Source of the DNA: Pseudomonas nitroreducens TX1
Lineage (GTDB): Bacteria; Pseudomonadota; Gammaproteobacteria; Pseudomonadales; Pseudomonadaceae
Direction: 5' to 3'
Length of the DNA stretch: 64,000 bases
NCBI RefSeq assembly: GCF_000313755.1
Contig: NZ_AMZB01000134.1
Coordinates: 62,001-126,000, forward strand
Part shown: piece after piece, positions 12,982 to 32,568 of the stretch
Layout: each line of letters starts with the position of its first letter
How positions within the stretch are numbered: the stretch's first letter is position 1
Translations under genes and position numbers: made by a program
Notes under the pieces: model-generated
Told to the model about the DNA's origin: nothing
What the model saw: only the letters and a program-made list of their open reading frames with translations
Database searches by the model: none

Positions 12982-13854
12982 ATGCAGAAAATCATTGGCG
13001 CCCTGATCATCATCGCCTGCGTGCTCGGCGGCTACGCCATGGCCCACGGCGACATGCGCGCGCTCTGGCAGCCGGCGGAAATGGTCATCATCCTCGGCGC
13101 GGGCCTGGGCACCCTGGTCGTCGCCAATCCGCGGGAAGTGCTGCTGGAGATGTGCTCGCAGATCAAGGGCGTGTTTGTCTTCAAGCGCCGCGGCGAGGAG
13201 TTCCAGCGCCAGTTGCTGATGCTGCTCTACGAGCTGCTGGAAATGGTCGACGTCGGCGGCCTCAAGGTGCTCGACGCGCACATCGAGGAGCCGGAGCAGA
13301 GCGATCTGTTCGCCCGCTACCCGCTGATCCTGCAGGAAAAGAACCTGATGGCGTTCATCGCCGACAACTTCCGCCTGATGGCCATGGGCAAGATCAGCGC
13401 CCATGAGCTGGAAGGCTTCCTCGAGCAGGAGCTGGACGCCATGGAGCACGCCCTGCTGCAGCCGTCCAAGTCGCTGCACAAGGTCGGCGAGGCGATGCCG
13501 GGTTTCGGCATTCTCGCGGCGATCCTCGGCATCATCATCACCATGGGCAACATCGGCGGCTCGGTGGCCGAGATCGGTGCGCACGTGGCCGCCGCGCTGG
13601 TGGGTACCTTCTTCGGCATCTTCGTCTGCTACTGCCTGATGGACCCGCTGTCCAACGCCATGTCGCAGCGGGTGAAGACCGAGCTGTCGGCGCTGGAGTG
13701 CGTGCGTACCACGCTGGTCGCCCACGTCGCCGGCAAGCCCACGCTGCTGGCGGTGGACGCCGGGCGCAAGCTGATCGAACAGGACGTGAAACCGGCCTTC
13801 AAACAGCTGGAGACCTGGGTCACCCGCTATGAGGAAGAGCGGGACGCAGCATGA
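12982..13854 (+). CDS. motA: flagellar stator protein MotA (LafT)
   Basis: MotA/LafT, 290 aa, has four transmembrane segments: about 1-20, 33-50, 168-190 and 200-222. The cytoplasmic loop contacts FliG. Family signatures are FGILAAILGIIITMG in TM3 with the conserved Gly-Pro-type turn EAMPGFG before it, and ALVGTFFGIFVCYCLMDPL in TM4. The Cys-containing TM4 and short loops fit proton-driven stators. Its stop overlaps the motB ATG. Confidence 0.94.
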   Translation: MQKIIGALIIIACVLGGYAMAHGDMRALWQPAEMVIILGAGLGTLVVANPREVLLEMCSQIKGVFVFKRRGEEFQRQLLMLLYELLEMVDVGGLKVLDAHIEEPEQSDLFARYPLILQEKNLMAFIADNFRLMAMGKISAHELEGFLEQELDAMEHALLQPSKSLHKVGEAMPGFGILAAILGIIITMGNIGGSVAEIGAHVAAALVGTFFGIFVCYCLMDPLSNAMSQRVKTELSALECVRTTLVAHVAGKPTLLAVDAGRKLIEQDVKPAFKQLETWVTRYEEERDAA

Positions 13855-15194
13855 AGAAACGTGCCGACAAGCACAGCGAAGTCATCATCAAGCGCCGCAG
13901 CAAGAAGGGGCACGATGACGAGCACGGCGGCGCCTGGAAGGTAGCCTTCGCCGACTTCACCCTGGCGATGATGGCGCTGTTCATGGTGCTGTGGATCGTC
14001 CATCCGCAGACCGAGCCACAGCCGGTGGCGGTGGGCGACCAGGATGCCAACCCGGTGGTGGACGGCGGTGCCGGCGTGTTCGATGGCGCCAGCCGCACGC
14101 CCGTCGAGTTGGACGGCATGCCGCAGCCGGTCAAGACCCCGGAGAAGCCCGCGCCGCAGCTGGCGCTCGACTCTGGCAAGCAAGGCAAGGCTGGCGAGCA
14201 GGCGCAGGATTCGAGCGTGCAGCAGGAAGGCGAAAGTCGCCAGTACGACAGCAACGAGGACCTGCGCGAGCTGGCCGAGTTGATCCGCGAAGTGTCCGGC
14301 AAGGTCGACGCACTGGCCAACATCGAGGTGACCGTGGTCCCGCAGGGGCTGCGCATCCTGATCAAGGACGACCAGCAGCGTTTCATGTTCGCCCGTGGCC
14401 AGGCCACCCTCGACCCGCATTTCCAGACCCTGCTGGGTGCGTTGTCCGGCGTGCTGGCGAAGGTGCAGAACAAGCTGATCTTGAGCGGCCACACCGATGC
14501 CGTGCAGTACCGTCGACCGGATGGCTACAACAACTGGAACCTCTCCGGCGACCGCGCCCTGCGCGCGCGCAACGTGATGGTCGACAGTGGCCTGCCGGCC
14601 GCGCAGGTGTTGCAGGTTGCGGCCCAGGCCGACGTCATGCCGCTGCGCCCGGAGGACCCGGAGAACGGCGCCAACCGGCGCATCGAGATTCTCCTGCTGA
14701 CCCATCGCGCGCAGAGCCTGTACCGGGAAATCTTCGGCGAAAGCTATGCACAGGTGCATTACTCGAAGTCGGGCGCGAAACTCGTCGAGCCGCAGCCGCA
14801 GCCGCAGCCGCAGCCGCAGCCGCAGCCGCAGCCGCAGCCGCAGCCGCAGCCGCAGCCGCAGCCGCAGCCGCAGCCGCAGCCGCAGCCGCAGCCGCAGCCG
14901 CAGCCGCAGCCGCAGCCGCAGCCGCAGCCGCAGCCGCAGCCGCAGCCGCAGCCGCAGCCGCAGCCGCAGCCGCAGCCGCAGCCGCAGCCGCAGCCGCAGC
15001 CGCAGCCGCAGCCGCAGCCGCAGCCGCAGCCGCAGCCGCAGCCGCAGCCGCAGCCGCAGCCGCAGCCGCAGCCGCAGCCGCAGCCGCAGCCGCAGCCGCA
15101 GCCGCAGCCGCAGCCGCAGCCGAACACGCCGGCTTCAGCGGCTGCCGAAGCAACCGTTCCCGCCCCGGCGGCCGAGCCGACCCTGAAGCTGTGA
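13851..15194 (+). CDS. motB: flagellar stator protein MotB (LafU) with a Gln-Pro repeat tail
   Basis: MotB/LafU, 447 aa, anchors the stator to peptidoglycan and carries the ion-binding Asp. A short basic N-terminus leads into the transmembrane helix FADFTLAMMALFMVLWIV with Asp35 as the ion ligand. A Pro/Gln/Glu-rich periplasmic linker follows, then an OmpA-type peptidoglycan domain (about 155-290) with LILSGHTDAV and GANRRIEILLLT. After that domain the protein carries Pro plus 55 consecutive Gln-Pro units (residues 314-424), then a short Ala/Pro tail. Normal MotB proteins stop soon after the OmpA domain, at roughly 300-340 aa. The tail is encoded by a perfect hexamer repeat. Confidence 0.94.
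   Translation: MKKRADKHSEVIIKRRSKKGHDDEHGGAWKVAFADFTLAMMALFMVLWIVHPQTEPQPVAVGDQDANPVVDGGAGVFDGASRTPVELDGMPQPVKTPEKPAPQLALDSGKQGKAGEQAQDSSVQQEGESRQYDSNEDLRELAELIREVSGKVDALANIEVTVVPQGLRILIKDDQQRFMFARGQATLDPHFQTLLGALSGVLAKVQNKLILSGHTDAVQYRRPDGYNNWNLSGDRALRARNVMVDSGLPAAQVLQVAAQADVMPLRPEDPENGANRRIEILLLTHRAQSLYREIFGESYAQVHYSKSGAKLVEPQPQPQPQPQPQPQPQPQPQPQPQPQPQPQPQPQPQPQPQPQPQPQPQPQPQPQPQPQPQPQPQPQPQPQPQPQPQPQPQPQPQPQPQPQPQPQPQPQPQPQPQPQPQPQPNTPASAAAEATVPAPAAEPTLKL
14790..15122 (+). repeat. (CAGCCG)n microsatellite inside motB
   Basis: A perfect tandem hexanucleotide: CCG followed by 55 copies of CAGCCG, 333 bp without a single substitution. Slippage in units of six keeps the reading frame, so tract-length variants would change tail length without breaking motB. 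All three forward frames and the reverse frames stay open across it, which creates long artefact frames. Confidence 0.97.
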
Positions 15195-15199
15195 ACCGC

Positions 15200-15688
15200 T
15201 CAGCGATTGCGCAGTTGGCGCGGGCAGAACACCTGGCGGGTCTCCACGCCGTAGAGGCAGCCGCCCATGGGTTCGAGGGTGATACGGGCGCCGCGTTGGC
15301 GGCCGTAGAGCAGGTTGAAGATCAATTCGCTGTCCAGGCCGCTGTCGGCCTGCAGGTTGCTGATGCTGTTCTCTTCCACCTGCAACTGGTAGCGCCCGCC
15401 CAGGTCGTTGCCGACCTGCCCGGAGACCTCGAGGATGTTGGCGTCCTGCTGGATCATCGAGTAGAAGCGCCCCTCGTGGAACATGGTGGTCTGGGCGATC
15501 TCCAGCACCTTGCCGTTGCCCAGCAGCACCTGGCCGGAAGCGGCGTAGCGACCGTCGATGGCCGAGGTGTTGTGTGCGTGCTTCCACAGCATGCCCAGCG
15601 CCATGGCCAGGCAGACCACGCCGAACAGCGAGATCAACAGGCAGCGGCGGGCCACGCCGGACTGGCGGCCCAGGGTCAGTTCAGGCAC
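15200..15688 (-). CDS. membrane-anchored periplasmic partner of the winged-helix regulator (ToxS-like position)
   Basis: Unrecognised small protein, 162 aa from a GTG at 15688 whose codon overlaps the stop of the upstream regulator gene. After a short cytoplasmic head it has one transmembrane helix (ISLFGVVCLAMALGMLW), then a periplasmic domain of about 120 residues that ends with a Cys pair region (GGCLYGVETRQVFCPRQLRN). The overlap with a ToxR/CadC-type regulator and the topology resemble ToxR-ToxS or TcpP-TcpH pairs. No sequence match to ToxS is claimed. It runs convergent to motB with only 5 bp between stops. Confidence 0.72.
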   Translation of the reverse strand: MPELTLGRQSGVARRCLLISLFGVVCLAMALGMLWKHAHNTSAIDGRYAASGQVLLGNGKVLEIAQTTMFHEGRFYSMIQQDANILEVSGQVGNDLGGRYQLQVEENSISNLQADSGLDSELIFNLLYGRQRGARITLEPMGGCLYGVETRQVFCPRQLRNR

Positions 15689-16515
15689 TTGCGCAGCTGC
15701 TCCTGGGGAATCCGGGCAACCTGGCTTTCGTGGATCAGCAGCCAGTTGGAATTGCCTTCGGGTTGCACGCAGACCAGTTCGTAGAAGCCGGAGGTCATGT
15801 GCAGCATGAGGCCGATGGGCCGGCTGGCCAGGTCGGCCAGTTGGTGGGCCAGGGGTCGGGTGCTGTTGATCAGCCGCTGCAGGTCCTGCTCGTTGTCCTC
15901 GACGTAGGTGATCTGCAGGGAGCCGACTTTCTGTTCGCTGGTGAGCACCGGACTGCGCACCTGGGTGTAGTAGAAGGCGCCGGAGAGACCCAGCAGGCCG
16001 AAAATGCAGAGGCTGGCGGCGGCAACTTTCAGACGCCGGGGATTCGGCGCTGAAGGCAAGGCGGCGGACGGGGCGGTGTCCGTCGCAATGACGTGCGGCG
16101 TGGCATCGGCCACTTCGACATCCGACTCGCTCGCCTGGCTGACCAGGTATTGCGGGTTGAACATGTAGCCGCGGCGCGGCAGCGTCTGGATGATCTGCCG
16201 CTGCTTTTCGTCCGCCAGCACCTGGCGCAGGGTATAGATCTGCTGGTTCAGGCTGCCCTGGCCGACGACGCGGTCGGACCACGCGTGGGTCAGCAGCTCG
16301 TCGCGCGCGACCACGTCGCCCGGGCTTTGCAGCAGGCGTTCGAGCACGCGGCTGCCGGAGAAACCCAGGTCGATGCGCTCCACCTGGCCGTCACGGTCAA
16401 GGTCGAGTTGATAGAGCGCGGGATAGAACTGCGCGACGCAATCGGGACGCCCGGTGCGGAGGGTCAGGCAGGCGATCGGCCGACTGTCCGTTGGCGTGGA
16501 AGTGAGTGTGTTCAT
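15676..16515 (-). CDS. ToxR/CadC-type winged-helix transmembrane regulator (LafZ-like)
   Basis: Predicted one-component regulator, 279 aa. An OmpR/PhoB-type winged-helix DNA-binding domain covers about residues 37-120, with DLGFSGSRVLERLLQSPGDV, the recognition helix area SLNQQIYTLRQVLADE, and the wing TLPRRGYMFN. A proline-rich linker is followed by one transmembrane helix (about 163-183) and a periplasmic domain of about 95 aa. E. coli Flag-2 carries a predicted transmembrane regulator, LafZ, near its flagellin gene, so this may be the counterpart. The ATG at 16515 is preferred; the frame can extend to 16569. It is transcribed in the same direction as lafA, about 290 bp from it. Confidence 0.82.
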   Translation of the reverse strand: MNTLTSTPTDSRPIACLTLRTGRPDCVAQFYPALYQLDLDRDGQVERIDLGFSGSRVLERLLQSPGDVVARDELLTHAWSDRVVGQGSLNQQIYTLRQVLADEKQRQIIQTLPRRGYMFNPQYLVSQASESDVEVADATPHVIATDTAPSAALPSAPNPRRLKVAAASLCIFGLLGLSGAFYYTQVRSPVLTSEQKVGSLQITYVEDNEQDLQRLINSTRPLAHQLADLASRPIGLMLHMTSGFYELVCVQPEGNSNWLLIHESQVARIPQEQLRKCLN

Positions 16516-16735
16516 CTTGCCCTTGCGAGCCGCGCCCTTGACGGTCGCGGGGGAACTCCATCGGTCCATGGAGGCAGAGGCATTATTTTGACGTCAGAAA
16601 AATGTGCGTGCAAGTTCTGAATTTTGCGCACGCGTGCTTGCAATTTTCACACAAGCCTCGAAACCACCGGCGCAGCAGGGCTGCGCCGCGACCCAGGGTC
16701 GCAACGCCGTTTGTCAGCGTACCCGCAGACGCAGA

Positions 16736-16804: not shown

Positions 16805-17644
16805 TTAGCCCAGCAGGCCCATGATCATGCTGGGCATCTGGCCGGCTTGCTTGAGCATGGAAATGCCGGACTGCATCAGCATGGAGCTCTTGGTCATGTT
16901 GGCGGTTTCGCTGGCGAAATCGGCGTCCATGATGCGGCCCTTGGCCATGTCGGTGTTGTCCTTCATGTTGGCCAGGTTGTTGGAGGTGTGGCCCAGGCGG
17001 TTGATCGCGGCACCGAAGGCGGCGCGGGTCTTGCCGACCTGGTCCAGGGCGGCGTTCAGACCGGTGATCGCGGCGGCGGCGCCGGCTTTCGGGTCCAGCG
17101 CCTGCACGGTGGTGCCCAGGGCGGTGACGGTGGCGGCGATGTCGGTGTCGGTGGCGCTGACGGTCATCACTTCGGCGGAATCGGAGCCGATCTGGAACTT
17201 GATGTCGGCTGCCAGCTTGCCACCGGTGCCGAACAGGCTGTCACCGGCATACTTGGTGTTGGTGACGATGTTGGTCAGCTCTTTGCCCAGCTCGTCAAAC
17301 TCGGACTTCAGGGCGTCCAGGTCCTTGTCGGAGTTGGTGCCGTTGGCGGACTGGGTGGCCAGGTCCTTCATGCGCTGGAGGATGTCGGTGGCTTCGCTGA
17401 AGGCGCCTTCGCCGGTCTGCAGCATGGAAACGGCATCGCTGGTGTTGCGCATGGCCACGTTCATGCCGCGGGTCTGGGCGTTCAGGCGGGTGGCGATCTG
17501 CAGGCCCGCGGCGTCGTCGGCGGCAGAGTTGATGCGCAGGCCGGTGCCCAGGCGCTGCTGGGAAGTAGCCAGCTGGCTGTTGGTCTTGCTCAGGCTGGTC
17601 TGGGTGATCAGGGAGGAGTAGTTGGTTTGAATCGACAAGGCCAT
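16805..17644 (-). CDS. lafA: lateral flagellin LafA
   Basis: Flagellin, 279 aa, short as is usual for lateral filaments. The N-terminal D0/D1 region begins with ALSIQTNYSSLITQTSLSKT, has a typical GTGLRINSAADDAAGLQIAT block, and continues with MNVAMRNTSDAVSMLQTGEG. The C-terminal D1/D0 region has GAAINRLGHTSNNLANMKDN and ends in a hydrophobic GQMPSMIMGLLG. The central variable domain is only about 60 residues. An AGGAAG SD lies 6 bp before the ATG. Its cap and chaperone genes (fliD, fliS) lie in the left arm. Confidence 0.95.
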   Translation of the reverse strand: MALSIQTNYSSLITQTSLSKTNSQLATSQQRLGTGLRINSAADDAAGLQIATRLNAQTRGMNVAMRNTSDAVSMLQTGEGAFSEATDILQRMKDLATQSANGTNSDKDLDALKSEFDELGKELTNIVTNTKYAGDSLFGTGGKLAADIKFQIGSDSAEVMTVSATDTDIAATVTALGTTVQALDPKAGAAAAITGLNAALDQVGKTRAAFGAAINRLGHTSNNLANMKDNTDMAKGRIMDADFASETANMTKSSMLMQSGISMLKQAGQMPSMIMGLLG

Positions 17645-17964: not shown

Positions 17965-18585
17965 ATGATCTCCGTCTATCAGTTGAAGTCCCGTTTCCAG
18001 AACCTGCTCCGCCCTCTGGTCACCCGCCTTTACGAGCGCGGCGTCACGGCCAACCAGGTGACGCTGGCGGCCTGCGGCCTTTCGCTGCTGGTGGCGCTCA
18101 CGGTCGCGCTGCTGGCCGGCCACGCCTGGATATTCCTGCTGATCCCCCTGTGGATGTTCCTGCGCATGGCACTCAACGCCATGGACGGCATGCTCGCCCG
18201 CGAGTTCGGCCAGCAGTCGAAGCTGGGTGCCTACCTCAACGAACTCACCGACGTGATCGCCGACAGCGCGCTGTACCTGCCGTTCGCCCTGCTGCCGGGT
18301 GTGGCCCCGGCGCTGGTGGTGCTGGTGGTCCTGCTGGCGGTGATCAGCGAATACGCCGGCGTGCTCGGGGTGATGGTGGGGGCTTCGCGGCGCTACGACG
18401 GCCCCATGGGCAAGAGCGACCGCGCGCTGTGCTTCGGCGTCCTCGGCGTGGCCGTGGCGGTCGGGCAATTGCCGCTGGCCTGGCTGAATCCGCTGCTGGT
18501 GCTGCTGGCGCTGTTGCTGGTGCTGACTATCGTCAACCGGGTGCGCCAGGGGCTGGCCGAGCAGAAGCAACAACCGGCCGGCTGA
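17965..18585 (+). CDS. CDP-alcohol phosphatidyltransferase (YnbA-like)
   Basis: Integral membrane enzyme, 206 aa, predicted to join a CDP-activated lipid to an alcohol head group. The CDP-OH-P-transferase motif DGxxAR-x8-G-x3-D-x3-D appears at 74-96 as D74-G75-x2-A78-R79-x8-G88-x3-N92-x3-D96: the third Asp is Asn. From memory, E. coli YnbA has the same Asn. Five or six hydrophobic helices are visible. It is the first gene of a six-gene operon that also encodes the CdsA-type enzyme that would make its CDP-lipid substrate. The alcohol acceptor is unknown. Confidence 0.88.
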   Translation: MISVYQLKSRFQNLLRPLVTRLYERGVTANQVTLAACGLSLLVALTVALLAGHAWIFLLIPLWMFLRMALNAMDGMLAREFGQQSKLGAYLNELTDVIADSALYLPFALLPGVAPALVVLVVLLAVISEYAGVLGVMVGASRRYDGPMGKSDRALCFGVLGVAVAVGQLPLAWLNPLLVLLALLLVLTIVNRVRQGLAEQKQQPAG

Positions 18586-18648
18586 ACCGCGGCCGCCATG
18601 TCAGGACGGGGACCGGACAGTCCCGCCAGCCATCGAACAGAGGAAGTT

Positions 18649-20406
18649 ATGCGCGAATCTTCAAACCACCACTTCGTTACCCACGACGGCGTCGAGCTGT
18701 TCTACCGCCACTGGCCGGCTGCTGCCGGAAACGACGAGCCGCGCCGCGCGGTGCTGCTGTTCCACCGCGGCCACGAGCATTCCGGGCGCATCGGCCACCT
18801 GGCCGACGAACTCGACCTGCCCGGTTTCGATGTCTTCGCCTGGGACGCCCGCGGCCACGGCCAGTCGCCCGGCGCGCGTGGCGACAGCCCGAGTTTCGGC
18901 ACCAGCGTGCGCGACGTGCAGACCTTCGTCGAGCACATTGCCTCAACCCATGGCATCGCCATCAGCGACATGGCGGTGGTGGCGCAGAGTGTCGGCGCGG
19001 TGGTCGCTTCCACCTGGGTGCACGACTACGCCCCGCCGATCCGCAGCCTGGTGCTCGCCTCGCCGGCGTTCAAGGTCAAGCTCTACGTGCCTTTCGCCCG
19101 GCCGGGCCTGAAGCTGGCGCGCTGGTGGCGCGGCAACTTCTTCGTCAACAGCTACGTGAAAGCGAAATTCCTTTCCCACGACCCCGAACGCATCGCCTCC
19201 TACGACAGCGACCCGCTGATCGCCAAGGCCATCTCGGTAAACGTGCTGCTGGGCCTGTATGAGGCGGCCGACCGCGTGGTGGCCGACGCCCAGGCGATCC
19301 AGGTGCCGACGCAACTGCTGATCTCCGGTTCCGACTTCGTGGTGCACCGCAAGCCGCAGCAACGCTTCTTCGACAACCTCGGCACGGCGCGCAAGGAACT
19401 GCACGTCCTGCCCGGCTTCTTCCATGACACCCTCGGCGAACTGCATCGCGAGCAGGCGACCGCGCGCGCCCGGCGCTTCATCCTCGAATGCTTTGCCCGC
19501 GAGCCGGAGCGGCCGGACCTGCGTGACGCCGACCGCTTCGGCTACACCTGCGCCGAGGCCGAAGCGCTGGCGACGCCGCTGCCGGCCTGGTCGATCCGTG
19601 ATCTGTACTGGCGCGCCACCCGCGCCAACATGCGCCTCGGGCGGCTGCTTTCGGACGGCATCAACCTCGGCTTCCAGACCGGCTTCGATTCGGGCAGCAC
19701 CCTGGACTACGTCTACCGCAACCAGCCCGCGGGCGCGGGGCCGGTGGGCCGGATGATCGACCGCACCTACCTGGAATCCGCCGGTTGGCGCGGTATCCGC
19801 CAGCGCAAGGTGAACATCGAGGAACTGCTGCGCCAGGCCATGGCCAACCTGCGCGAACAGGGGCGCGAGGTGCGCATCCTCGACATCGCCGCCGGCCACG
19901 GGCGCTACATCCTCGAAGCGCTGCAGGGCGTCGATCCGCTGCCGGAAAGCGTGCTGCTGCGCGACTACAGCGAGCTGAACGTGCGCGAAGGCTCGGCGCT
20001 GATCGAGCGCCTGGGCCTGAAGGAACGTGCGCGCTTCGTGCAGGGCGACGCCTTCGACGGCGCCGATCTCGCCGCCGTGCAACCAAAGCCGACGCTGGCC
20101 GTGGTCTCCGGTCTGTATGAGCTGTTCGCCGACAACGCCATGGTCAGCGGCTCGCTGGCCGGCCTGGGCGAGGCGGTGGAGGAGGGCGGCTACCTGATCT
20201 ACACCGGCCAACCCTGGCACCCGCAGCTGGAGCTGATCGCCCGCGCCCTTACCAGCCACCGCGCCGGGCAGGCCTGGGTGATGCGCCGTCGCACGCAGCT
20301 GGAGATGGACCAGTTGGTCGCCGCCGCCGGCTTCCGCAAGCTGGCCCAGCGCATCGACGAGGACGGCATATTCACCGTCTCCCTGGCCCGCCGGGAGCGC
20401 AACTGA
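18649..20406 (+). CDS. alpha/beta hydrolase - SAM methyltransferase fusion (YnbC-like)
   Basis: Two-domain soluble protein of 585 aa. Residues 1 to about 290 are an alpha/beta hydrolase of the monoacylglycerol-lipase type, with GxSxG-like nucleophile region VAQSVGA (Ser114) and later GSDFVVH and GFFHD supplying Asp and His. Residues about 330-585 form a class I methyltransferase with SAM motif I ILDIAAGHGRY near residue 410. An AGGAAG SD points to the ATG at 18649 rather than an upstream start at 18598. E. coli ynbC has the same fusion. It probably acts on a lipid made by the operon; substrate unknown. Confidence 0.87.
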   Translation: MRESSNHHFVTHDGVELFYRHWPAAAGNDEPRRAVLLFHRGHEHSGRIGHLADELDLPGFDVFAWDARGHGQSPGARGDSPSFGTSVRDVQTFVEHIASTHGIAISDMAVVAQSVGAVVASTWVHDYAPPIRSLVLASPAFKVKLYVPFARPGLKLARWWRGNFFVNSYVKAKFLSHDPERIASYDSDPLIAKAISVNVLLGLYEAADRVVADAQAIQVPTQLLISGSDFVVHRKPQQRFFDNLGTARKELHVLPGFFHDTLGELHREQATARARRFILECFAREPERPDLRDADRFGYTCAEAEALATPLPAWSIRDLYWRATRANMRLGRLLSDGINLGFQTGFDSGSTLDYVYRNQPAGAGPVGRMIDRTYLESAGWRGIRQRKVNIEELLRQAMANLREQGREVRILDIAAGHGRYILEALQGVDPLPESVLLRDYSELNVREGSALIERLGLKERARFVQGDAFDGADLAAVQPKPTLAVVSGLYELFADNAMVSGSLAGLGEAVEEGGYLIYTGQPWHPQLELIARALTSHRAGQAWVMRRRTQLEMDQLVAAAGFRKLAQRIDEDGIFTVSLARRERN

Positions 20407-21755
20407 TGGGCTCGATGCCGGCGCGCGATCCCGGAGTCCTGCGGCGCGCGGTGATCTGGCTGCTGTTCCTCGGGCCGTTCTTCTTCCTCAGCTACGGCTT
20501 CGCCAACTGGGTGGCGGCGCAGCGCGAATCGGTCGGCGTGCTGGTGTTCGACTGGGAGCGCGGTACGCCGCTGTGGCCCTGGACGATCATCCCGTACTGG
20601 TCCATCGACCTGCTCTACGGGCTGTCCTTCCTGCTGCCGCGCACGCGGCGCGGGCTGGACTGCCATGCCCTGCGCCTGCTCACCGCGCAGGTTATCGCGG
20701 TGGCCTGCTTCCTGCTGTTCCCGTTGCGTTTCAGCTTCGAGCGGCCCATGCAGGAGGGCTTCTTCGGCGTGCTGTTCGACCTGCTGATGGGCTTCGACAA
20801 ACCCTTCAACCAGGCGCCTTCGCTGCACATCGCGCTGCTGGTGATCCTCTGGGTCGCTTATGGCCGATACCTGCAAGGCGCGTGGCGTTGGTTGCTGCAC
20901 GGCTGGTTCACGCTGATCGGTGTCTCGGTGCTGACCACCTGGCAGCATCACTTCATCGACGTGCCGACCGGTGCGCTGCTGGGCTTCTTCTGCGTCTGGC
21001 TGTGGCCGCGGGAGGTTCGCTCGCCGCTGCAGGCGTGGCGCCTCAGCAATGATCCGCAGCGGCGTCGGCTGGCGGGGCTCTACACCTGTGGTGCGCTGTC
21101 GTGCCTGGTGTTGGCGCTGGCGGGCGGCGGCCTGTGGCTCTGGTTGTGCTGGCCTGCGGTATCCCTGGCGCTGGTTGCGCTCTGCTACCTGGGCATCGGC
21201 ACGGTGGGTTTCCAGAAACGCCTGGACGGACGCCATTCGGTGGCGGTCTCCTGGCTGCTGGCGCCCTACTGGCTGGGCGCGTGGCTCAACGCGCGCTGGT
21301 GGACGCGCCACCACCCGCAGCCCGACGAGGTGCTGCCGGGGCTCTGGCTCGGGCGCCTGCCCGACTGGCATCAACCCCGGCACTTGCCCAGCCTGGCGAT
21401 CCTCGACCTGTGCGCCGAGCTGCCCTGTACCGCGCCGGCGCGCCGCTACGAGTGCCTGCCGCTGCTCGATCTGGTAGCGCCGAGTGTCGAGCAGTGCCGC
21501 CAAGGCGCGGAGCTGATCCAGCGACTGCACGCCGAAGGTCCGCTGCTGGTTTGCTGTGCGCTGGGCTACTCGCGCAGCGCCACGCTGGTGGCGGCATGGC
21601 TGATGATTTCCGGCCGCGCGAACACGCTGGAGGAGGCCTTGGCGCTGGTTCGCCGGGCGCGCCCGCAGGTGGTGCTCAAGGCCGACCAACTGGCGGTGCT
21701 GGCGCAGATCGCCGGCCAGCCGAGCCTGCCGCAGGAGGTGAGCCATGTCGGTTGA
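20406..21755 (+). CDS. PAP2 phosphatase - dual-specificity phosphatase fusion (YnbD-like)
   Basis: Membrane protein of 449 aa with two phosphatase modules. The N-terminal PAP2 superfamily part has several transmembrane helices, PSLH (138-141) and HxxxDxxTG (His181, Asp185, Thr188-Gly189). After further hydrophobic segments (about 220-295) comes a cytoplasmic protein-tyrosine/dual-specificity domain with the CX5R loop C384-ALGYS-R390-S. The residue before the Cys is Cys383, not the usual His. E. coli ynbD combines the same modules. It may dephosphorylate a phosphatidylglycerophosphate-like or phosphatidylinositol-phosphate-like intermediate. Start codon is coupled to the previous stop. Confidence 0.86.
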   Translation: MGSMPARDPGVLRRAVIWLLFLGPFFFLSYGFANWVAAQRESVGVLVFDWERGTPLWPWTIIPYWSIDLLYGLSFLLPRTRRGLDCHALRLLTAQVIAVACFLLFPLRFSFERPMQEGFFGVLFDLLMGFDKPFNQAPSLHIALLVILWVAYGRYLQGAWRWLLHGWFTLIGVSVLTTWQHHFIDVPTGALLGFFCVWLWPREVRSPLQAWRLSNDPQRRRLAGLYTCGALSCLVLALAGGGLWLWLCWPAVSLALVALCYLGIGTVGFQKRLDGRHSVAVSWLLAPYWLGAWLNARWWTRHHPQPDEVLPGLWLGRLPDWHQPRHLPSLAILDLCAELPCTAPARRYECLPLLDLVAPSVEQCRQGAELIQRLHAEGPLLVCCALGYSRSATLVAAWLMISGRANTLEEALALVRRARPQVVLKADQLAVLAQIAGQPSLPQEVSHVG

Positions 21756-22191
21756 TCCGGGCCTGATCCTGGTGGCCAGCCTGCTGCGCCGTGGCAGCAG
21801 TCTCAATGGCCTTTCCTCCGCACTCACGGTGCTGGCGCTGGCGCTGGGTTTCTACGGCGTGCTGATGGCCAGCGCCACCCTGGCGTTCAGCCTGAGCATG
21901 GCGTTGCTGGTGCTGCTCGGGCTGGTGCAGAAATTCTATGCCATGCGCGTGGCGCTGGACGCCGACCTGTTCGAAGCCATGGCCAATGCCGGCGACGCGC
22001 TGCCGGAAAAGACCCGGCAGCTGGACGAAGCGCTGGCCACCTACGCCGGAGTGGCGGCCGACAAGGCCGGCCGCCCCTGGGGCGAGCGCAGCCGTGGCGC
22101 CCTGGCGCTGCTGCGTCGGCAAGTGCTGCTCTGTGCCGCGCAATGGCTGATCGCGCTGCTGTGCCTGATCATCCTGACCTTCCAATCCTGA
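21745..22191 (+). CDS. small membrane protein of the lipid operon, unknown function
   Basis: Unrecognised protein, 148 aa, overlapping the previous gene by 11 bp. Two adjacent hydrophobic helices lie near residues 24-62, a soluble helical middle (65-120) follows, and a third helix is at the C-terminus (VLLCAAQWLIALLCLIILTF). No catalytic motif is seen. The tight overlap suggests a subunit or scaffold for the membrane enzymes on both sides. The four-gene E. coli ynb operon has no equivalent that I recall. Confidence 0.75.
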   Translation: MSVDPGLILVASLLRRGSSLNGLSSALTVLALALGFYGVLMASATLAFSLSMALLVLLGLVQKFYAMRVALDADLFEAMANAGDALPEKTRQLDEALATYAGVAADKAGRPWGERSRGALALLRRQVLLCAAQWLIALLCLIILTFQS

Positions 22192-22205
22192 GGAACGCAC
22201 CCGCA

Positions 22206-22835
22206 ATGCTGGAACGACTCTTCGCCTATGCCATCATCGCCGGCGCCCGCGCGGTGACCGGCCTGCGCAGCCTGTGGATCGGCACCACGCCGATTCCGGC
22301 GCAGCGCATCTACTACGCCAACCACAGCAGCCATGGCGATTTCGTCCTGCTCTGGGCCTCGCTGCCGCCGGAGCTGCGTTCTCGCACGCGGCCGGTCGCC
22401 GGGATGGACTACTGGGGCAAGGGCGGGCTGCGTGGCTTCATCATCAACCGCGTATTCCACGGCGTGCTGATCGACCGCACGCGCGGCGCCGAGGGCGGCA
22501 ACCCACTGGAACCGGTGGAGCGTGCGCTGGCCGAAGGCGATTCGCTGATCCTGTTCCCCGAAGGCACCCGCAACCTCGACGAGGAAGTGCGCCTGCTGCC
22601 GTTCAAGAGTGGCATCTACCACCTGTCCAGGGCGCACCCGCAGGTGGAGCTGGTGCCGGTGTGGCTGGACAACCTCAACCGCGTGATGCCCAAGGGCCGC
22701 GCGCTGCCGTTGCCGCTGCTGTGCACCCTGAGCTTCGGCGCGCCGCTGGCGGTAGAGGAGGGCGAGGCCAAGGATGCCTTCCTCGAACGCGCCCGCGAGG
22801 CCTTGCTGAAACTCGCCGCGCCGGAGGGTCGCTGA
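22206..22835 (+). CDS. PlsC-type 1-acyl-glycerol-3-phosphate acyltransferase
   Basis: Acyltransferase of 209 aa, predicted to transfer an acyl chain to a lysophospholipid-type acceptor. Motif I is NHSSHGDF (NHxxxxD), motif III FPEGTRN, with the acceptor-binding VFHGVLIDR between them. I start at the ATG at 22206, just after the upstream stop; a longer frame begins inside the previous gene at 22143. It would feed phosphatidate to the CdsA homologue next door. A housekeeping PlsC is expected elsewhere, so this is a dedicated copy. Confidence 0.87.
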   Translation: MLERLFAYAIIAGARAVTGLRSLWIGTTPIPAQRIYYANHSSHGDFVLLWASLPPELRSRTRPVAGMDYWGKGGLRGFIINRVFHGVLIDRTRGAEGGNPLEPVERALAEGDSLILFPEGTRNLDEEVRLLPFKSGIYHLSRAHPQVELVPVWLDNLNRVMPKGRALPLPLLCTLSFGAPLAVEEGEAKDAFLERAREALLKLAAPEGR

Positions 22836-22836
22836 A

Positions 22837-23766
22837 ATGAACCAGACCTGGCTGCTCTTCGGTGGCATCGGCGCCATCCTGGTCCTCGCTTCCCTGGTCG
22901 GCGCGGTGCTGCGCTGGAAGGCCCCGCCCGGGCCGCACGCGGTGATCGACAACCTCAACGCGCGGATCAACGCCTGGTGGGTCATGGTCGCAGTGATCGG
23001 CTGTGCCTTCGCTCTCGGCTATTGGGCGGTGATCCTGCTGTTCTACGGGGTGTCCTTCTACGCCCTGCGCGAATTCCTCACCCTGATGCCGACCCGCCGC
23101 AGCGACTATCCGGCGCTGGTGGCGGCGTTCTACTTCGTGCTGCCGATGCAGTACCTGCTGATCGGCATCGGCTGGTACGGGCTGTTCTCCATCTTCATCC
23201 CGGTCTACGTGTTCCTCCTGCTGCCGATCCTCGCCTCGCTGGGTGGCGACTCCAAGCACTTCCTCGAACGCGCCTCGAAGGTGCAGTGGGCGCTGATGCT
23301 GGCGGTGTTCTGCATCTCCTACGTGCCGGCGCTGCTGACCCTGGAGATCGCCGGCTACGAGGGACGCAACCTGCTGCTGATCGCCTTCCTGGTCATAGTC
23401 GTGCAGCTGTCCGACGTGCTGCAGTACGTCTGCGGCAAGCTGGTGGGCAAGCGCAAGATCGCGCCGAACCTGTCGCCGTCCAAGACCCTGGAAGGCTTCG
23501 TCGGCGGGGTGACGCTGGCCACGCTGATCGGCGGCGCGCTGTGGTGGATCACGCCCTTCAGCTTCTGGCAGGCCCTGCTGATCGCGCTGATGATCAACAT
23601 CCTCGGCTTCTTCGGCGGCCTGGTGATGTCGGCGATCAAGCGCGACCGCGGGGTGAAGGACTGGGGCCACATGATCGAAGGCCACGGCGGCATGCTCGAC
23701 CGGCTGGACTCGGTGTGCTTCGCCGCTCCGGTGTTCTTCCACTTCGTCCGCTACTGGTGGACCTGA
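22837..23766 (+). CDS. CdsA-type phosphatidate cytidylyltransferase (YnbB-like)
   Basis: Polytopic membrane enzyme of 309 aa that would make CDP-diacylglycerol from CTP and phosphatidate. About eight hydrophobic helices are visible. The C-terminal CDS signature is present: SAIKR, then KDWGHMIEGHGGMLDRLDS. It starts one base after the plsC-like gene and is the last gene of the operon. Together the six genes could make an activated lipid, attach a head group, then dephosphorylate and methylate the product. Confidence 0.9.
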   Translation: MNQTWLLFGGIGAILVLASLVGAVLRWKAPPGPHAVIDNLNARINAWWVMVAVIGCAFALGYWAVILLFYGVSFYALREFLTLMPTRRSDYPALVAAFYFVLPMQYLLIGIGWYGLFSIFIPVYVFLLLPILASLGGDSKHFLERASKVQWALMLAVFCISYVPALLTLEIAGYEGRNLLLIAFLVIVVQLSDVLQYVCGKLVGKRKIAPNLSPSKTLEGFVGGVTLATLIGGALWWITPFSFWQALLIALMINILGFFGGLVMSAIKRDRGVKDWGHMIEGHGGMLDRLDSVCFAAPVFFHFVRYWWT

Positions 23767-31449: not shown

Positions 31450-32568
31450 ATGCGTAGAACACTCATGTGTAGAACCCTTGGGCGCCTGCTGGCGGCCTTC
31501 TGCCTGTTCTGGCAGGCCGAGGCGCTGGCCATCCCCTTGCTGGACCTCGTGGACATCGAAGGCGTGCGCGAGAACCAGCTGATTGGCTACGGCCTGGTGG
31601 TCGGCCTGGACGGCACCGGCGACAAGAACCAGGTGAAGTTCACCAACCAGTCGGTGGCCAACATGCTCAAGCAGTTCGGCGTGAACCTGCCGCCGAACGT
31701 CGACCCGAAACTGAAGAACGTCGCCGCCGTGAGCGTCACCGCCAGCGTGCCGCCGTCCTACAGCGCCGGGCAGACCATCGACGTCACCGTGTCCTCGCTG
31801 GGCGACGCCAAGAGCCTGCGCGGCGGCCTGCTGCTGATGACGCCGCTGCAGGGTGTGGACGGTGAGGTGTATGCGCTGGCCCAGGGCAATCTCGTGGTGG
31901 GCGGCCTGCACGCCCAGGGCCAGAGCGGCTCCAGCTTGTCGATCAACAGCGCCAACAGCGGCCTGATTCCCAATGGCGCGACCATCGAACGGATGATCCC
32001 CAGCGACTTCGCCCAGCGCCCGGACGTGATGCTCAACGTGCGCAAACCGAGCTTCCAGACCGCCACCCAGGTGATGAACGCGGTGAACGAACGCTTCGGC
32101 TCCGGCACTGCCACCGCGCTGGACGGCACCAAGGTGTCGGTGCGTGCTCCGGTCAGCCTGGCCCAGCGCACCAGCTTCATGGCCATGCTCGAAGGCATGG
32201 AAGTGCAGGAAGGCCGCACCCGGCCCAAGGTGGTGTTCAACAGCCGCACCGGCACCGTGGTGGTCGGCCAGGGCGTGCGCGTGAAGGCGGCCGCCGTGGC
32301 CCACGGCACGCTCACCGTGACCATCAGCGAGAACCCCCAGGTCAGCCAGCCCGGCCCGTTCTCCAATGGCACCACGGCCGTCACGCCGCAGTCGGACGTC
32401 TCGGTCAGCCAGGACAAGAAGCCGATGTTCAAGTGGCCCGAGGGCACCAGCCTGGAAAGCATCATCAACACGGTGAACAGCCTGGGCGCCACGCCGGACG
32501 ACGTGATGAGCATCCTCCAGGCGCTGGAGCAGGCCGGCGCGCTGAACGCCGAGCTGGTGGTGATCTGA
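31450..32568 (+). CDS. flgI: flagellar P-ring protein FlgI
   Basis: FlgI, 372 aa, builds the periplasmic P ring; FlgA is its chaperone. A signal peptide ends near WQAEALA. The mature start has [20 protein letters not shown] and [10 protein letters not shown], then [20 protein letters not shown]. The C-terminus is [20 protein letters not shown]. The first 30 bases are an imperfect tandem duplication giving two Met codons five residues apart (31450 and 31465). I use the first. The stop overlaps the flgJ ATG. Confidence 0.95.

What the first reader, a model, noticed from the sequence alone, without database searches (positions are those of the whole stretch)
14790..15122. MotB tail of 55 perfect Gln-Pro repeats after the peptidoglycan-binding domain
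A flawless 333-bp (CAGCCG) tract adds a 111-residue polyproline-like rod distal to the OmpA domain, where MotB normally ends. Perfection at the DNA level implies recent expansion or active slippage, and unit size six keeps frame. The tail could reach toward the outer membrane or P ring, tune stator anchoring or act as a variable-length spacer. I know of no described MotB of this kind.
Basis: partly seen in the sequence, partly recalled or inferred. Interest (0 to 1): 0.78.

Follow-up and report, generated by a model that had tools for sequence, protein, structure and literature searches.

The report
Runaway Gln-Pro repeat in LafU tail
A short Gln-Pro stretch that sister species carry at the end of a lateral-flagellum motor protein has ballooned here to 55 perfect copies, most likely by DNA slippage, giving an extreme length variant of a naturally variable tail rather than a new kind of motor.

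Summary
In detail: 55 uninterrupted CAGCCG units (14793-15122), in frame, lie after the peptidoglycan-binding domain of an intact LafU-like MotB in a lateral flagellar cluster of a Pseudomonas close to P. nitroreducens. Twelve close LafU proteins (89-97% identical to the window's over residues 1-313) carry 0-9 Gln-Pro units in the same tail. So the tract is an expanded pre-existing microsatellite, not a new module. The exact word (CAGCCG)4 occurs in 6 of 25 genus genomes, and every hit lies in lafU. One sister species has all its units as CAGCCA, a sign of array-wide homogenisation. The statement that MotB normally ends at the OmpA domain is wrong: the 17 long-frame MotB relatives read from other Gammaproteobacteria have tails of 59-181 residues (16 of 17 at least 102), and this tail is 157. 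Unusual are its monotony, its perfection and the jump from at most 9 to 55. The exact number needs long reads, because the genome is a 138-contig draft. I think it is a near-neutral expansion of a disordered, polyproline-II-prone spacer; a tether or length-tuning role is unproven.

The parts
13851..15194 (+). lafU-like motB, 447-aa lateral-flagellar stator B subunit
   Evidence: ORF; PF13677 MotB_plug 15-53 and PF00691 OmpA 179-276 over cut-off; best NCBIfam model NF005273 LafU, 259 bits, below its cut-off of 383; D35 (channel Asp by recall) and G213, D216, L231, R235, R276, R277 invariant in 41 rows
14703..14789 (+). conserved LafU extension after the OmpA domain, residues 285-313 (helix 285-295, hairpin 301-312)
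   Evidence: AF2 model; Y291 and F295 invariant in 41 rows
14793..15122 (+). (CAGCCG)55 = (Gln-Pro)55 tract, residues 315-424
15123..15191 (+). 23-residue C-terminal peptide after the tract, ending TLKL; all 9 clade members with at least one QP end in TLKL, ALKL or ALQL
12982..13854 (+). lafT / motA-like stator A subunit, overlaps lafU by 4 bp
   Evidence: TIGR03818 MotA1 377 bits, cut-off 303.8; PF20560, PF01618
12207..12968 (+). lafS-like FliA/WhiG sigma factor
   Evidence: TIGR02479 224 bits, cut-off 189.6
16805..17644 (-). lateral flagellin lafA
   Evidence: NF038071 lat_flg_LafA_2, 372 bits, cut-off 365
31450..32568 (+).
   Evidence: ORF; PF02119 match at G000:C134:93543-94562, i.e. window 31543-32562; a second flgI lies on contig C123

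Best explanation
The tract is a microsatellite that expanded inside the naturally variable C-terminal tail of LafU, the peptidoglycan-anchored stator subunit of a lateral flagellum. Shown: an intact LafU; 1-9 QP units in the same tail in 8 of the 12 other members of its clade; one single unit type within each array of two or more units; no other (CAGCCG)4 in the genome. Inferred: the tract grew by replication slippage or unequal recombination, helped by the strong self-pairing of the (CGGCTG)n strand. A unit of six cannot shift the frame, and the QP stretch, modelled as coil and probably polyproline-II-like, sits beyond the anchor domain, so growth was tolerated and is probably close to neutral for torque generation. 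Its physical effect is a longer spacer between the anchor domain and a short C-terminal peptide, with slight effects on stator mobility at most.
For: QP runs of 55, 9, 8, 5, 4, 4, 4, 3, 1, 0, 0, 0, 0 in 13 LafU proteins that form one clade (support 100/99); the 12 others are 89-97% identical to the window over residues 1-313. All (CAGCCG)4 matches in 25 genus genomes are at lafU, in 6 of 25. All 55 units are CAGCCG; in L002 (P. nicosulfuronedens) all five units and the preceding GAGCCA use CCA, 5% of Pro codons in 15 genes of the window, which points to array-wide homogenisation. The minus-strand (CGGCTG)20 folds as DNA at -55 kcal/mol, better than 200 of 200 shuffles; the plus strand folds worse than 200 of 200. 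AF2 gives coil throughout the tract. The same hexamer has expanded in two other proteins among 398 family genomes: an FtsY (13 perfect units) and a GspB-like protein (6).
Against: 55 is far outside the 0-9 range: a crude geometric fit to the eight other non-zero counts gives 3e-6, so ordinary slippage alone needs a change of regime, selection or an assembly error. mutS (own genome) and sbcD (25 of 25 genus genomes) are present, so no repair defect was found to explain it; mutL, sbcC and recA were not looked for. No strain-level variation was available. Neutrality was not measured. The shared C-terminal end of the QP-bearing orthologues could mean that the tail does something. In tolA, the nearest studied case, contractions were RecA-dependent (PMC3477136 abstract), so recombination may matter more than slippage.
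Confidence: 0.75

Rival explanations
1. The tract is a functional spacer: a polyproline-II rod, up to about 34 nm if fully extended, that carries the C-terminal peptide towards the outer membrane or the P ring and tunes stator anchoring.
For: All 9 clade members with at least one QP end in TLKL, ALKL or ALQL. Of 11 other MotB-type tails, 6 end in a KLN-(I/L)-F-type motif after a variable stretch, and a seventh in a variant of it. 4 of 17 long Gammaproteobacterial tails end in LPPIIDPSLLP. TonB's proline-rich domain is described as PPII-like and long enough to span the periplasm (a reference title in PMC7014051; passages of PMC12204202).
Against: Length is not conserved: 0-55 in one clade. The 4 of 13 without QP end differently. 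Of the 81 of 398 family genomes with a LafU match, no other frame leaves room for a tail over about 90 aa. AF2 shows no structure in the tract. [quoted passage not shown]
Confidence: 0.12
2. The copy number is an assembly artefact: a genuine shorter or longer QP array was mis-sized, because 330 bp of a perfect 6-bp repeat is a cycle in a short-read graph.
For: The genome is a 138-contig draft. Orthologues in single-contig genomes have at most 9 units (G002 9, G024 4, G005 1, and G023, G015 and G004 none).
Against: The array lies inside a 215,849-bp contig with normal flanks. An array shorter than the k-mer or read would normally be assembled exactly, so a mis-sized array should still be long (inference). 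The read type is unknown.
Confidence: 0.2
3. Contingency tuning: the tract changes length within populations and selection picks lengths suited to surface motility, as proposed for repeat number in E. coli tolA.
For: Hypervariable between sister species, and (CAGCCG)4 is confined to this gene within 25 genus genomes. tolA repeat number changes stress tolerance, and contractions arise in clonal populations (PMC3477136, abstract and one results section).
Against: No within-species data. A unit of six cannot switch the gene off. No phenotype is known.
Confidence: 0.1

Closest known systems
LafU / lateral-flagellar MotB (NCBIfam NF005273; MotB_plug + OmpA architecture)
   Same: Domains, channel Asp, peptidoglycan-binding residues, position directly after a MotA gene in a lateral flagellar cluster
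   Different: 259 bits, below the NF005273 cut-off of 383; tail of 157 aa with 55 QP units, against 31-66 aa in the other 18 LafU-type loci and 18-41 aa in 20 further family loci
MotB relatives with long C-terminal tails in other Gammaproteobacteria (17 loci)
   Same: Tail of similar length beyond the OmpA domain; 11 of 17 hold at least 15% Pro
   Different: Those tails are complex sequence with no QP run longer than 1, 4 of 17 with a LPPIIDPSLLP end; this one is a monotonous dipeptide
TonB / TolA periplasmic proline-rich or repeat domains
   Same: Proline-rich spacer or tandem-repeat length variation in a partner of a proton-driven motor in the periplasm (passages)
   Different: There the spacer lies between membrane helix and terminal domain and transmits force; here it lies beyond the anchor domain
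In-frame (CAGCCG)n in FtsY (G342) and a GspB-like protein (G101)
   Same: Same hexamer, same QP product
   Different: 13 and 6 perfect units only; other proteins (names are my reading of the sequences)

Membership tests
MotB / LafU stator B subunit | N-terminal MotB plug/transmembrane segment with channel Asp | tested here: met
   PF13677 over cut-off; D35 invariant in 41 rows; its role as channel Asp is recalled
MotB / LafU stator B subunit | OmpA-type peptidoglycan-binding domain with conserved Gly, Asp, Leu, Arg, Arg | tested here: met
   PF00691 over cut-off; G213, D216, L231, R235 and R276/R277 invariant, matched by eye to the residues listed in passages of PMC3080404
MotB / LafU stator B subunit | Adjacent MotA gene in a lateral flagellar cluster | tested here: met
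   TIGR03818 at 12982-13854, LafA_2 flagellin, FliA-type sigma; FliK, FliL, FliD; FliE to FliJ, FlgM, FlgN
NCBIfam NF005273 LafU equivalog | Score at or above curated cut-off | tested here: not met
   259.3 bits against 383; so named LafU-like by domains and place, not as a member of this equivalog model
Phase-variable (on/off) contingency locus | Repeat unit whose copy number shifts the reading frame or promoter spacing | tested here: not met
   Unit of 6 bp inside the ORF; the frame reads to a stop after the tail in all 13 clade members
Length-variable tandem-repeat protein (as tolA) | Copy number varies between relatives | tested here: met
   0-55 between species; within-species variation not tested
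Length-variable tandem-repeat protein (as tolA) | Copy number changes phenotype | not testable with these tools
   needs motility assays

The most novel reading that the evidence does not exclude
The lateral stator of this Pseudomonas group carries a locus-specific hypermutable spacer whose length tunes how far a C-terminal peptide reaches from the peptidoglycan anchor, so that colonies with different tract lengths differ in surface motility; this would be a graded, not on/off, contingency locus in a flagellar motor.
Probability: 0.1. Interest if true: 0.7.

Novelty: new variant of a known kind. Interest (0 to 1): 0.36.

Why it matters
It gives a natural length series (0, 1, 3, 4, 5, 8, 9, 55 units) in one orthologous stator tail whose cores are 89-97% identical to the window's. 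That makes the neglected question of what MotB tails beyond the peptidoglycan anchor do directly testable. It also shows one hexamer that, across the 25 genomes held of a genus, is expanded to four or more units in a single gene only.

Tried and rejected
Rejected: chance; a tract added de novo; genome-wide instability of this hexamer, since no other (CAGCCG)4 exists in the genome (other repeat words were not scanned genome-wide); loss of mutS or sbcD (mutL, sbcC and recA not looked for); on/off phase variation (unit of 6); overlapping genes, since the SR, AA and GC frames run open through the array because the repeat has no stop codon there.

Led nowhere or was weak: GC skew of the window is near zero and changes sign, so the lagging strand was not settled. 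PDB sequence matches to the QP tract itself (circumsporozoite protein, tegument protein, ribosomal eL29 and others) are low-complexity matches and were ignored. Paper searches, of which only the listings were seen unless stated: MotB + proline-rich + C-terminal + lateral flagella, 0 papers; LafU + lateral flagella + MotB, 5, none opened; TonB + proline-rich + Gln-Pro, 0; Pseudomonas with two of secondary flagellar, lateral flagella and nitroreducens, 13, none opened; MotB + C-terminal tail and others, 2, 3 and 27 with 15 listed; TonB + dipeptide repeats, 6; tandem-repeat terms, 12; MotB with QP/PQ terms, any 2 of 6, 70 papers with 20 listed, none of whose titles is on a MotB tail of this kind. 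Passages or parts seen: PMC12204202, PMC7014051, PMC3080404, PMC11673145 (nothing on the tail in the passages shown); abstract and one section of PMC3477136. The library is open PMC only, so 'not described' is limited to it. Fold search was not run because homology was plain.

Limits: one genome per species, so no strain-level test. The copy number comes from a draft. In the family and class searches only the best 5 or 6 first-look candidates of each genome were scored, so matches can have been missed. The tree used 28 rows: the 19 LafU-type loci and 9 of the 35. LafU tails were read for 19 + 35 + 20 loci, with overlaps; the rest of the 81 family genomes were judged by open-frame length only. 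In one search, 17 of 70 other-than-window-LafU matches (frames over 400 aa) were read; shorter ones were not. The AF2 model is modest overall (mean pLDDT 65.8, pTM 0.47). In the (CAGCCG)6 family scan the reversed control pattern rang in 2 of 398 genomes (1 and 4 matches), against 5 of 398 for the true pattern.

Full report
What is there. The window is G000:C134:62001-126000, a 6.69-Mb genome in 138 contigs. ORF 13851-15194 encodes 447 aa. It has a MotB plug segment (15-53) and an OmpA domain (179-276), both over Pfam's cut-offs, and directly follows a MotA gene (TIGR03818, 377 bits, cut-off 303.8). The cluster also holds FliE, FliF, FliG, FliH, a FliI-type ATPase, FliJ, FlgM, FlgN, FliD, FliK, FliL, a FliA-type sigma factor and a flagellin over the cut-off of the lateral flagellin model LafA_2. 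A second flgI on another contig indicates two flagellar systems. The best NCBIfam model for the ORF is LafU, but at 259 bits against a cut-off of 383, so I call it LafU by domains and context. Bases 14793-15122 are 55 perfect CAGCCG units, preceded by the CCG at 14790; 23 residues follow the tract.

It is an expanded ancestral tract. Among 56 related genomes, 12 other LafU proteins are 89-97% identical to the window's over residues 1-313. Read in the proper orientation, the 13 tails hold QP runs of 55 (window), 9, 8, 5, 4, 4, 4, 3, 1, 0, 0, 0 and 0. The nine with at least one QP share SGA[KR]L[IV][EQ]P before the repeat region and end in TLKL, ALKL or ALQL; the four without end differently. 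A tree of 28 cores puts these 13 in one clade (100/99), with little support inside it. Six more distant LafU-type loci (66-69% identical) have 0 or 1 QP. Among 35 loci from named genomes, runs of three or more occur only in L041-L045.

It is specific to this gene. LafU is found in 18 of 25 genus genomes at E <= 1e-60. The exact word (CAGCCG)4 occurs in 6 of 25, and all 66 listed matches lie at the lafU position (coordinates). (CAGCCG)6 occurs in 5 of 398 family genomes: lafU in three, an FtsY with 13 perfect units (G342) and a GspB-like protein with 6 (G101) (the last two names are my reading). The reversed control rang in 2 of 398. These scans see only this exact codon pair, not other QP codings. 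LafU is found in 81 of 398 family genomes at E <= 1e-60. The 14 others with open frames over 400 aa were all fetched, with 6 more; their tails are 18-41 aa, and in 13 of the 14 the long frame is shown to come from open sequence upstream of the start (in L121 the start was not found by the script, but its tail is 27 aa). The remaining frames are at most 363 aa, which leaves no room for a tail over about 90 aa.

How it arose. All 55 units are CAGCCG. The chance that 110 Gln and Pro codons agree by codon usage alone is about 4e-12, using 15 genes of this window. In L002 all five units, and the preceding Glu-Pro, use CCA, a 5% codon. The units of an array thus change together, as slippage or unequal recombination predicts (inference). 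Folded as single-stranded DNA, 20 units of the (CGGCTG) strand form one continuous hairpin at -55 kcal/mol (200 of 200 shuffles are weaker), and the other strand folds worse than 200 of 200 shuffles. The lagging strand was not settled. mutS and sbcD are present. A geometric fit to the other eight non-zero counts gives 3e-6 for 55 or more, so the jump is not ordinary: selection, a threshold for instability, or an assembly error must be kept open.

What it does to the protein. AF2 with 41 LafU sequences (mean pLDDT 65.8, pTM 0.47) gives blocks of mostly 78-93 over residues 131-260 of the OmpA region (59-72 over 261-280). It adds a helix (285-295) and a hairpin (301-312), then coil for the whole tract with block pLDDT 59-73 over 311-420. 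At 0.31 nm per residue (recalled PPII rise) the tract would be at most about 34 nm long, longer than the peptidoglycan-to-outer-membrane gap (recalled), though a flexible chain is shorter. Tails beyond the OmpA domain are not unusual. In 369 Gammaproteobacterial genomes, 70 (the own one included) have a match at E <= 1e-30. All 17 matches with frames over 400 aa, other than the window's own LafU, were fetched: tails of 59-181 aa, 16 of 17 at least 102 aa, Pro 5-29% with 11 of 17 at least 15%, and no QP run longer than 1. By the same count this LafU tail is 157 aa. Eleven other MotB-type loci have tails of 42-122 aa. The E. coli MotB-derived chimera in the PDB also ends in a short Pro-rich stretch. 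So length is not unusual; monotony is.

Verdict. I judge it an extreme, probably recent, near-neutral expansion in a variable disordered tail (0.75). A precedent for length-variable repeats in a periplasmic motor partner is E. coli tolA, where repeat number changes stress tolerance and RecA-dependent contractions arise spontaneously (PMC3477136: abstract and the section on spontaneous variation). [quoted passage not shown] The tether and tuning readings remain possible and are testable with the natural length series.

Noticed in passing
L150, L151, L154, L155 (variants in L148, L149): Long, variable MotB tails of other Gammaproteobacteria end in LPPIIDPSLLP (4 of 17 read), as if the tail were a flexible linker presenting a C-terminal binding motif.
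   Followed up: partly
L022, L023, L026, L028-L030 (variant in L027): Non-LafU MotBs have a variable, mostly Pro/Ala-rich stretch followed by a conserved KLN-(I/L)-F-type end (6 of 11 tails plus one variant).
   Followed up: partly
15200-16569 (-): Convergent to lafU lies a winged-helix regulator (15676-16569, Trans_reg_C; HilA/CadC-like below cut-off) followed by a reading frame without a Pfam match; perhaps a transmembrane regulator pair of the lateral flagella (inference).
   Followed up: partly
L094 (G342): FtsY-like protein with an N-terminal run of 13 perfect CAGCCG units coding Gln-Pro: the same hexamer expanded in another gene.
   Followed up: partly
17965-23766 (+): A run of lipid-type genes beside the flagellar cluster: CDP-alcohol phosphatidyltransferase-like, hydrolase/methyltransferase-like and phosphatase-like ORFs (my reading, untested) and a CTP_transf_1 cytidylyltransferase; resembles E. 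coli ynbABCD (recalled).
   Followed up: no
14703-14789 (+): A conserved LafU extension (consensus YRELFGESYAQVxYSxSGA) after the OmpA domain, modelled as helix plus hairpin, precedes the variable tail.
   Followed up: partly
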